The translations under genes and the position numbers were made by a program. From the NCBI RefSeq assembly GCF_050624435.1, contig NC_134538.1, positions 117,574,437 through 117,638,436 on the forward strand: DNA of 64,000 nt. The letters run 5' to 3'. This DNA is from Tenrec ecaudatus. Its lineage: Eukaryota; Chordata; Mammalia; Afrosoricida; Tenrecidae. Below, one piece after another: positions 55,385 to 56,148 of this stretch (the stretch's first letter is position 1; each line of letters starts with the position of its first letter). Below the pieces are notes generated by a model that saw nothing but the letters and a program-made list of their open reading frames with translations, searched no databases and was not told the origin of the DNA.

Positions 55385-56148
55385 TGTTGTTTTTTTTTTG
55401 CAGGCAGGCTCAATTCACTTTATTACATTTTGTATAAAATTGACTATGTGGTAGCCACAGCTGGAGCCTGGGTCCTCTGCATGGAGACTCTGGTGTGGGT
55501 CTTCACAAGATGGTCAGTGAATTCCTGGTAGGGAGACTTGGTGAACACGGTCTCTTTCCAGAGGTCAGGGGTCAGATAGCTGTACGTCTTGGAGATGGCA
55601 TCAAAGGTGGCTTTGGCAAAGTTGCCCAGGGTGGCTGTGCAGCCCCTAGCCGACGTGTAGCAGTCATCAATCCCTGCCATCATCAGCAGTTTCTTGGGCA
55701 CAGGGGCTGAGACGATGCCAGTGCCCCTAGGGGCAGGGATGAGTCGCACCAGCACAGACCCACAGCGGCCGGTCACCTTGCAAGGGACCGTGTGGGGCTT
55801 GCCAATCTTGTTGCCCCAGTAGCCTCGCCGCACCGGGACAATGGACAGCTTGGCCAGGATGATGGCCCCTCGGATGGCGGTGGCGACTTCCTTGGAGCAC
55901 TTGACACCCAGGCCAACGTGCCCGTTGTAATCCCCGATGGCAACGAAGGCCTGCAGTAGAGACAAGGAGTGAGTATCTTCGGATCTCTGAGCTGCTCTGC
56001 ACTAGCAGTTCCCAGGGCCTGTCGTGCCCCCCGGAAGGGACAGGCCACAGGAGGCCTGCCCGAGGTCCTGCGGGCATCCTTTCTCTCTCTCCTCTTTACG
56101 AAAGTCACACATGTTGTGGCAGGTGTAACCATGCAGAGCAGGGAGAGT
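55385..56148 (-). pseudogene. RPS2: RPS2 (uS5) partly processed retrocopy
   Basis: The minus strand carries 168 in-frame codons from AFVAIGDYNGHVGLG to QAPAVATT and a TAG stop (55444-55950). This is the C-terminal portion of 40S ribosomal protein S2, about residues 126-293 of 293, with all exons joined. The only difference I notice from the mammalian protein is VSM where VSV is usual. Downstream come an AATAAA (near 55425) and an A-run (55391-55400), the mark of a reverse-transcribed mRNA. Upstream, at 55951, the coding sequence meets TCTCTACTGCAG, a splice acceptor, and 198 bp of intron follows. A 17-bp duplication, CTAGATGGCCACTTGTT (55368-55384 and 56149-56165), flanks it. With no N-terminal half, it cannot replace the parent gene. 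The Met that opens the frame at 55965 is intronic. Confidence 0.95.
56017..56146 (-). ncRNA. H/ACA box snoRNA copy in the retained RPS2 intron
   Basis: On the minus strand the intron fragment folds as a two-hairpin H/ACA snoRNA. Hairpin 1 has the lower stem CTCTCC/GGAGAG and upper stem GTTACAC/GTGTGAC, separated by an internal loop. An H box AGAGAA follows. Hairpin 2 has the lower stem TGCCC/GGGCA and a 9-bp upper stem GGGCAGGCC/GGCCTGTCC. ACA lies at 56022-56020, three nucleotides from the predicted 3' end. Length is about 130 nt. RPS2 introns host SNORA64 and SNORA10, so it is most likely one of these; I cannot say which without alignment. The guide pockets look intact, but the copy has lost its host promoter and the upstream splice context, so expression is doubtful. 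Confidence 0.8.

What the first reader, a model, noticed from the sequence alone, without database searches (positions are those of the whole stretch)
55385..56148. RPS2 retrocopy whose 5' end coincides with an intronic H/ACA snoRNA
Seen: a 764-bp insertion with a 17-bp target duplication and an A-run contains spliced RPS2 3' exons, then unspliced intron. The intron part is almost exactly one H/ACA snoRNA (56017-56146) plus 66 nt to the acceptor, and the insertion ends about 2 nt beyond the snoRNA 5' end. Known: RPS2 introns host H/ACA snoRNAs; snoRNA retroposons with flanking host sequence exist; RNAs with a snoRNA 5' end and a poly(A) tail have been described. Inference: the L1 machinery copied an RNA trimmed to the snoRNP at its 5' end. 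The alternative is that reverse transcriptase stopped at the structured snoRNA in a partly spliced pre-mRNA.
Basis: partly seen in the sequence, partly recalled or inferred. Interest (0 to 1): 0.78.

Follow-up and report, generated by a model that had tools for sequence, protein, structure and literature searches.

The report
Gene copies of snoRNA-ended RNA fragments
The window holds a pasted-in copy of a ribosomal-protein RNA that began exactly where a small nucleolar RNA inside it begins, and the same genome holds many independent copies with such an end from another gene, so these copies appear to record RNAs whose decay stopped at the snoRNA.

Summary
55385-56148 is an RPS2 retrocopy: spliced exons 5-7, the last 198 nt of intron 4 and an A-tail, between 17-bp duplications. 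Its 5' end is nucleotide 1 of the Rfam SNORA64 model. A second, independent young copy (C1) has the same 5' end; a third, old one (C65) ends within 2 nt. Of 37 ordinary RPS2 copies 31 reach the cap site and 0 contain intron 4. Best explanation: L1 machinery copied 3'-snoRTs, poly(A)+ host-RNA fragments with 5' ends at a snoRNA, known from human cells. Reverse-transcriptase stalling suits the minority that start inside the snoRNA, not the main peak. Not settled: no RNA data, only two hosts surveyed, and an argument from cap-derived G is weaker than it looks. The RNA class and one similar retrocopy (rhesus SNORA24b) were known; the pile-up, and its bearing on SNORA70 family growth, I did not find in the searches made.

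The parts
55368..55384 (.). target-site duplication, left copy (CTAGATGGCCACTTGTT)
55385..55399 (-). A-rich tail of the retrocopy (T-rich on the + strand)
   Evidence: follows the RPS2 3' end, which has AATAAA upstream
55400..55524 (-). RPS2 exon 7 (last exon), spliced
   Evidence: parental exon at C96:110693586-110693711
55525..55616 (-). RPS2 exon 6, spliced
   Evidence: parental exon at C96:110693409-110693502
55617..55950 (-). RPS2 exon 5
   Evidence: contiguous with the intron in the parent (C96:110692799-110693330)
55951..56016 (-). 66 nt of RPS2 intron 4 between the snoRNA 3' end and the acceptor
56017..56148 (-). complete SNORA64 H/ACA snoRNA; its nt 1 (56148) is the 5' end of the retrocopy; identical to the parental snoRNA
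   Evidence: (RF00264 69.6 bits, model 1-133)
56149..56165 (.). target-site duplication, right copy
55068..56207 (.). interspersed repeat that the insertion interrupts, as far as it was aligned (300 nt before the insert, 59 nt after it; true extent not determined); seven other copies in the window cross the joined site

Best explanation
The insert is an L1-type retrocopy of a 3'-snoRT, a polyadenylated 3' fragment of the RPS2 transcript that kept the SNORA64-containing intron, spliced the introns downstream, and lost everything upstream of the snoRNA. Proposed steps: (1) intron 4 is retained, which brings an early stop codon with exon junctions downstream; (2) the RNA enters 5'-to-3' decay; (3) the exonuclease (XRN1 in the cytoplasm most likely, XRN2 in the nucleus possible) stops at the H/ACA snoRNP, leaving an uncapped poly(A)+ RNA whose first nucleotide is snoRNA nt 1; (4) L1 proteins prime on the poly(A) tail and copy the RNA to its 5' end. 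Shown here: the structure of the copy, the coincidence of its 5' end with the snoRNA 5' end, repeated independent events for two host genes, and no read-through copy among those scored. Inferred: the RNA in this species' germ line, the nuclease, the uncapped state, and L1 as the enzyme.
For: Independence: the window and C1 copies have different flanks and duplications. They differ from the parent at 6 and 7 sites and share one, where the 6 spliced copies checked (L003-L008) also differ from the parent, so the parent changed there. Same 5' end: the ambiguity ranges (window -1/+1, C1 +1/+2) overlap only at nt 1. A third, old copy, L063 (78% identity), starts at +3 with its downstream junctions spliced. 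Same end as SNORA64-only copies: 12 of 18 start at +1 or +2. Generality: of 39 RPL10 copies scored (40 of 135 candidates, one being the parent), 30 start at -3..+3, 9 at +8..+44, 0 further upstream although the query carried 300 nt of upstream sequence; uniform ends over 200 nt would give P about 3e-38. In a Rfam-based set (42 places scored, one the parent) 0 of 41 copies match the parent upstream and 36 of 41 are spliced across the last intron. The enzyme normally reaches the RNA's end: 31 of 37 ordinary RPS2 copies start at model positions 1-14, the cap region. Cap test, partly for: 20 of 22 copies starting at the cap C have a G before it, 14 outside the duplication; the C1 copy and the four SNORA64-only copies starting at +1 have none. 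Early stop: retained RPS2 intron 4 gives a stop 385 nt before the next exon junction. Such RNAs exist: human 3'-snoRTs have median 5' ends at the C/D snoRNA start and 2 nt upstream of H/ACA starts, and RPL10-SNORA70 is a named case (PMC12152556, parts 1-2 of 5 and passages). Names: (RPS2 by PDB match; RPL10 by Pfam Ribosomal_L16 and PDB match).
Against: No RNA data for this species. The cap test is not clean: of the 8 SNORA64-only copies that start at +2, 6 (L055-L058, L069, L070) have a G before the C, outside the duplication in 4 by the script, although mature intronic snoRNAs are not capped (recalled); so an extra G need not mean a cap, or the parent once had G at +1. The RPS2 stop codon lies 3' of the snoRNA, so cleavage at the stop would not by itself make this fragment. 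The best-studied human H/ACA case (EIF4A1-SNORA67) was mapped by 5'-RACE to the end of the exon before the intron, not to the snoRNA (PMC9394076, passages). 9 of 39 RPL10 copies and 6 of 18 SNORA64-only copies start inside the snoRNA, so stops in it do occur. The Rfam-based set favours complete snoRNAs, and all genome searches scored only part of their candidates. Only two host genes were examined. The 57 nt upstream of SNORA64 in RPS2 fold well (-19 kcal/mol). Strict criteria found a duplication in only 15 of 41 SNORA70 copies.
Confidence: 0.87

Rival explanations
1. Reverse-transcriptase stop: L1 reverse transcriptase copied a full-length retained-intron RNA and stopped when it reached the 5' edge of the snoRNA or the structured, G-rich sequence just upstream.
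For: The 57 nt upstream in RPS2 are G-rich, with GGG directly before snoRNA nt 1, and fold at -19 kcal/mol. RPL10 also has several GGG runs upstream of its snoRNA. Stops inside snoRNAs are seen: 9 of 39 RPL10 copies, five of them at +39..+44, and 6 of 18 SNORA64-only copies.
Against: The enzyme would have to cross the whole snoRNA and stop at its last base. The nearest G-run differs in place: it abuts nt 1 in RPS2 but ends 12 nt upstream in RPL10, yet both genes give ends at the snoRNA start, and 0 of 39 RPL10 copies reach beyond -3. SNORA64-only copies, whose template is expected to end at the snoRNA, mostly have the same 5' end (12 of 18). 31 of 37 ordinary RPS2 copies are full length.
Confidence: 0.07
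2. Capped internal start: transcription starts at the snoRNA 5' end inside the intron and makes a capped poly(A)+ RNA that is then copied.
For: It would also give one fixed 5' end with the downstream introns spliced. 6 of 8 SNORA64-only copies starting at +2 have a G before the C, as a capped RNA might leave.
Against: Cap-site RPS2 copies carry an extra G (20 of 22, 14 outside the duplication), but the C1 copy and the four SNORA64-only copies starting at +1 do not; the window copy's G is part of its duplication. The arrangement at two unrelated genes would need two promoters placed at snoRNA starts.
Confidence: 0.03
3. Template switching: reverse transcriptase moved from a truncated RPS2 mRNA to a mature snoRNA, giving a chimera.
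For: Chimeric L1 retrocopies with small RNAs at the 5' end are known (recalled).
Against: The 66 nt of intron between snoRNA and exon are present and contiguous as in the parent, and the exon begins exactly at its acceptor.
Confidence: 0.01
4. DNA duplication of one founder copy: the C1, C65 and RPL10 copies are duplicates of single insertions and not independent events.
For: One RPL10 pair (L098/L103) does share upstream flanks (83% over 89 nt).
Against: The window and C1 copies have unrelated flanks, different duplications and no shared derived change. Among the 41 SNORA70 copies only L098/L103 show strong upstream similarity; L090/L102 match weakly, 72% over 68 nt.
Confidence: 0.02

Closest known systems
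3'-snoRT (snoRNA-retaining transcript, short form), human; PMC12152556 (parts 1-2 of 5 and passages seen) and PMC9394076 (passages seen)
   Same: Host RNA with the snoRNA intron kept, poly(A)+, 5' end at or near the snoRNA; RPL10-SNORA70 is a named example.
   Different: Those are RNAs in human cells; this is a genomic DNA copy in another species. RPS2, SNORA64 and SNORA10 do not occur in the main text of either paper (finds).
Rhesus SNORA24b retrogene (PMC2832892, section 9 read)
   Same: snoRNA, then the 3' part of its intron, then exons 2 and 3 of the host SNHG8, poly(A) and a target-site duplication.
   Different: One copy, from a non-coding host, read as partially processed hnRNA; that section gives no reason why the copy starts at the snoRNA and reports no pile-up.
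SNORA70 paralogs of rhesus and mouse (PMC2832892, section 9)
   Same: snoRNA at the 5' end, a shared 3' sequence of about 490 bp, poly(A).
   Different: The authors found no transposable element and ascribed them to a non-TE mechanism. In the present genome the 3' sequence (about 430-440 nt after the snoRNA) is the RPL10 intron remainder plus the last exons. The rhesus and mouse sequences were not compared here.
SPA and cytoplasmic SPA RNAs (SNORD107, SNORD109A; NOP56-SNORD86), from the review PMC11028025 (passages)
   Same: 5' end at a snoRNA, 3' poly(A); for SPA1 and SPA2 the review describes trimming by XRN2 blocked at the snoRNP.
   Different: Box C/D; SPA1 and SPA2 arise by read-through past a poly(A) site, not from a retained intron of a protein-coding mRNA.
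Mature snoRNA retroposons (Weber 2006; Luo and Li 2007; neither held, recalled only)
   Same: L1-type insertion, 5' end at the snoRNA start.
   Different: Their A-tail follows the snoRNA closely; here 66 nt of intron and three spliced exons intervene. 18 SNORA64-only copies were found here, 15 of them with a duplication by the script.

Membership tests
L1-mediated retrocopy (processed pseudogene) | Target-site duplication | tested here: met
   17 bp, exact; seven other copies of the host repeat in the window cross the joined site
L1-mediated retrocopy (processed pseudogene) | 3' A-tail at the parental poly(A) site | tested here: met
   tail follows ..AATAAAGTGAATTGAGCCTGCCTGC
L1-mediated retrocopy (processed pseudogene) | Spliced exons | tested here: met
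   exons 5-6-7 joined; the parent has introns of 79 and 87 nt there
L1-mediated retrocopy (processed pseudogene) | L1 endonuclease-like nick site (TTTT/AA, recalled) | tested here: inconclusive
   read by eye: TTGTT/AA at the window copy, TTTT/AA at the C1 copy; no statistical test
3'-snoRT RNA as template | 5' end at or within about 2 nt of the snoRNA start | tested here: met
   Rfam model position 1 is the last base of the insert; same for the C1 copy
3'-snoRT RNA as template | snoRNA intron retained, downstream introns spliced, poly(A) | tested here: met
3'-snoRT RNA as template | the RNA is present in cells of this species | not testable with these tools
   no RNA data held
Mature snoRNA retroposon | A-tail directly after the snoRNA | tested here: not met
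   66 nt of intron and three exons lie between the snoRNA and the tail
H/ACA snoRNA SNORA64 | match to the Rfam covariance model above the gathering score | tested here: met
   69.6 bits against 35, full model
SPA lncRNA | 5' snoRNA end made by trimming downstream of an upstream poly(A) site | tested here: not met
   the snoRNA lies inside intron 4 of RPS2, not beyond its poly(A) site

The most novel reading that the evidence does not exclude
Retroposition of snoRNP-ended decay fragments is a general route by which H/ACA snoRNA families grow in mammals. The large SNORA70 family would be mostly RPL10 3'-snoRT retrocopies, and the 5' ends of such copies, young and old (84-98% identity to the parent), would be a base-level fossil record of where 5'-to-3' decay stops at snoRNPs in the germ line.
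Probability: 0.6. Interest if true: 0.75.

Novelty: new variant of a known kind. Interest (0 to 1): 0.64.

Why it matters
Stable RNA fragments with a snoRNA at the 5' end have been described in human cell lines and tissues. If the reading is right, such RNAs also existed in the germ line of this animal (taken to be a mammal; not tested) and were available to L1. A retrocopy's 5' end then becomes a permanent record of a decay intermediate's end, readable from any genome without RNA. It also offers a simple source for a multi-copy snoRNA family (SNORA70), and it shows how a copy can carry an intact snoRNA to a new place together with part of its host.

Tried and rejected
Template switching was rejected because the intron is contiguous with the exon as in the parent. 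Segmental duplication of one insertion was rejected for the RPS2 copies because flanks, duplications and substitutions differ. A G-quadruplex in the 57 nt upstream was tried as an RT barrier: ViennaRNA with quadruplexes allowed predicted none. The tombusvirus 3' UTR match was set aside: it is below the gathering score and overlaps the snoRNA. A Rfam SNORA64 genome search did not complete; a DNA query gave the SNORA64 copies instead. Surveys of EIF4A1/SNORA67 and of the ACA64 neighbour of RPS2 did not complete. The listings of literature searches (titles and starts of abstracts; mostly a part of the papers hit) showed no paper linking 3'-snoRTs with retrocopies; most subscription papers are not in that library, and Weber 2006 and Luo and Li 2007 were not held.

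Full report
What is there. Window 55385-56148 is a 764-bp insertion between two exact copies of a 17-bp duplication. On the minus strand it consists of a complete SNORA64 (56017-56148; RF00264, 69.6 bits against a gathering score of 35, model 1-133), 66 nt of intron, RPS2 exons 5, 6 and 7 joined without introns, and an A-rich tail at the RPS2 poly(A) site. The protein part matches residues 126-293 of 40S ribosomal protein S2. Its parent is the gene at C96:110692799-110693711 and upstream (L010), with seven exons and six introns in my model. Intron 4 is 255 nt long; the snoRNA starts 57 nt after the donor and 198 nt before exon 5.

The insertion is real. It sits in an interspersed repeat. When the two flanks are joined with one copy of the duplication, eight other stretches of the window match; seven of them cross the duplicated site, none with a gap inside it.

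It happened more than once. The genome search returned 42 matches, 40 of 101 candidate places having been scored. One, at C1:247179400-247180143, has the same composition, other flanks, its own 14-nt duplication with one mismatch, and the same 5' end. The two copies differ from the parent at 6 and 7 sites and share one; there the six spliced copies examined agree with the retrocopies against the parent, so it is a change in the parent. A second search with snoRNA, intron remainder and exon start scored 40 of 58 candidates: the window, the parent, C1, a third, old host-derived copy (L063, C65, 78% identity, starting at snoRNA +3, downstream exons spliced, no duplication found by the script), 18 SNORA64-only copies and 18 exon-only matches. 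Of the RPS2 copies scored, none reaches upstream of the snoRNA; the window copy's extra G is accounted for by its duplication.

Controls within RPS2. I mapped 37 ordinary spliced copies (all the other places listed) on the parental mRNA: 31 start at model positions 1-14, the cap region; one more (L045, 24) shows the cap motif just upstream by eye; 5 are truncated, at 87, 135, 142, 420 and 543; 0 of 37 contain intron 4. The enzyme therefore normally runs to the end of its template. Of 22 copies that start at the cap C, 20 have a G before it, 14 of them outside the duplication by the script, which I read as a copied cap. The C1 copy and the four SNORA64-only copies starting at +1 have no such G, which suggests an uncapped template. 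This test is not clean: of the eight SNORA64-only copies starting at +2, six have a G before the C, four of them outside the duplication, so an extra G need not mean a cap. Of the 18 SNORA64-only copies 12 start at +1 or +2 and 6 further inside, so host-derived and snoRNA-only copies share one 5' boundary.

Generality: RPL10 and SNORA70. An Rfam search with SNORA70 scored 42 places out of 283,422 loose candidates. One is the parental gene (L086, extended as L121), with introns; the protein is RPL10 (Pfam Ribosomal_L16; 60S ribosomal protein L10 residues 110-214). The other 41 run from the snoRNA through the intron remainder into the next RPL10 exon, in two of them (L114, L118) for only some 14-23 nt. 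36 of 41 are spliced across the last intron, 0 of 41 resemble the parent upstream, and strict criteria find a duplication in 15 of 41. One pair (L098, L103) is a duplicate of one insertion. By BLAST 36 of 41 start at +1..+3 and five further inside, although the covariance model calls them complete. That set is biased towards complete snoRNAs, so I ran a search without that bias: 300 nt of parental sequence upstream, the snoRNA, the intron remainder and the next exon. Of 135 candidates 40 were scored: the parent and 39 copies, many of them the same places as before. Starts were at -3..+3 in 30 of 39, at +8..+44 in 9 of 39, and further upstream in 0 of 39; the commonest start is -1 (12 copies). 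Counting the duplicated pair once gives 29 of 38. Five of the nine internal starts fall at +39..+44, which looks like a reverse-transcriptase stop site; the main peak does not.

Mechanism. Human 3'-snoRTs have this anatomy: poly(A)+ fragments with median 5' ends at the start of C/D snoRNAs and two bases upstream of H/ACA snoRNAs, partly cytoplasmic, with RPL10-SNORA70 as a named case (PMC12152556, parts 1-2 of 5 and passages). For EIF4A1-SNORA67 dyskerin binds and stabilises the fragment and NMD inhibitors lower it, although its 5' end was mapped to the end of the preceding exon (PMC9394076, passages). Retaining RPS2 intron 4 creates a stop codon 385 and 477 nt before the next two exon junctions, and the RPL10 frame read off stops about 106 nt upstream of its snoRNA and about 457 nt before the next junction, so both retained-intron RNAs look like NMD targets. 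The RPS2 stop lies just 3' of the snoRNA and the RPL10 stop 5' of it; that may be why RPL10 yields so many more such copies, but this is a guess. Decay by a 5'-to-3' exonuclease halted by the snoRNP, followed by L1 copying from the poly(A) tail, explains the main observations. The nuclease, the germline RNA, the uncapped state and L1's role are inferred.

Against this. The RPS2 upstream segment folds well (-19 kcal/mol) and has GGG directly before the snoRNA, so for RPS2 alone a stall at that boundary cannot be excluded. RPL10 has G-runs upstream too, but the nearest ends 12 nt before the snoRNA, while the copies end at the snoRNA in both genes; that argues against a stop at G-runs. Only two hosts could be surveyed; requests for two more did not complete.

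What is known. A rhesus copy, SNORA24b, with the same build was published in 2010 as a product of partially processed hnRNA, and SNORA70 paralogs with a shared 490-bp 3' part and poly(A) were ascribed there to a non-TE mechanism (PMC2832892, section 9 read). The present data suggest that such paralogs are RPL10 3'-snoRT retrocopies; I did not compare the rhesus or mouse sequences. I found no paper that links 3'-snoRTs with retrocopies in the listings. Hence a new variant of a known kind.

Noticed in passing
L079-L120, and one search places: All 41 non-parental SNORA70 places scored (40 counting a duplicated pair once) are RPL10 fragments that contain the snoRNA and continue into RPL10 exon sequence; 36 are spliced across the last intron.
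   Followed up: yes
C1:42503016, C96:24951598, C62:157877391, C96:57684316, C119:225480: Five RPL10 copies start at SNORA70 +39..+44, a second, smaller pile-up that looks like a reverse-transcriptase stop or fragment end inside the snoRNA.
   Followed up: no
L052-L062, L064, L066-L068 (SNORA64-only copies): 15 of 18 alignments end 5-8 nt beyond the Rfam 3' end (..CCCTGGG), in most followed by an A-rich stretch, as if oligoadenylated, 3'-extended precursors were copied.
   Followed up: partly
L055, L056, L057, L058, L069, L070: Six of eight SNORA64-only copies starting at +2 have G where the parent has A at +1; in L055-L058 the G lies outside the duplication by the script. Old parental allele or untemplated base: unexplained, and it weakens the cap argument.
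   Followed up: partly
L012-L048: RPS2 retrocopies that start at the cap C nearly always carry a G before it (20 of 22), 14 outside the duplication by the script: probably a copied cap.
   Followed up: partly
L114: An RPL10 piece aligned from SNORA70 +47 to just inside the next exon, with a duplication ACACCAGAACCT read by eye: an internal fragment of unclear origin.
   Followed up: no
L010:1462-1589 (-): A second H/ACA snoRNA (ACA64, RF01225, 128.6 bits) lies next to the parental RPS2 gene on the opposite strand; I recall the same neighbourhood in human (SNHG9/SNORA78).
   Followed up: no
window 55444-56001 (-): The retrocopy keeps an open frame of 185 codons, 17 of them from intron sequence; probably just youth. 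Expression was not tested.
   Followed up: no
window 17861-17941, 25269-25601, 31397-31650, 35073-35406, 43234-43395, 43478-43829, 61712-61876, 61959-62279: Further copies of the interspersed repeat into which the retrocopy inserted (I recall it as an afrotherian L1 3' end; not tested).
   Followed up: partly
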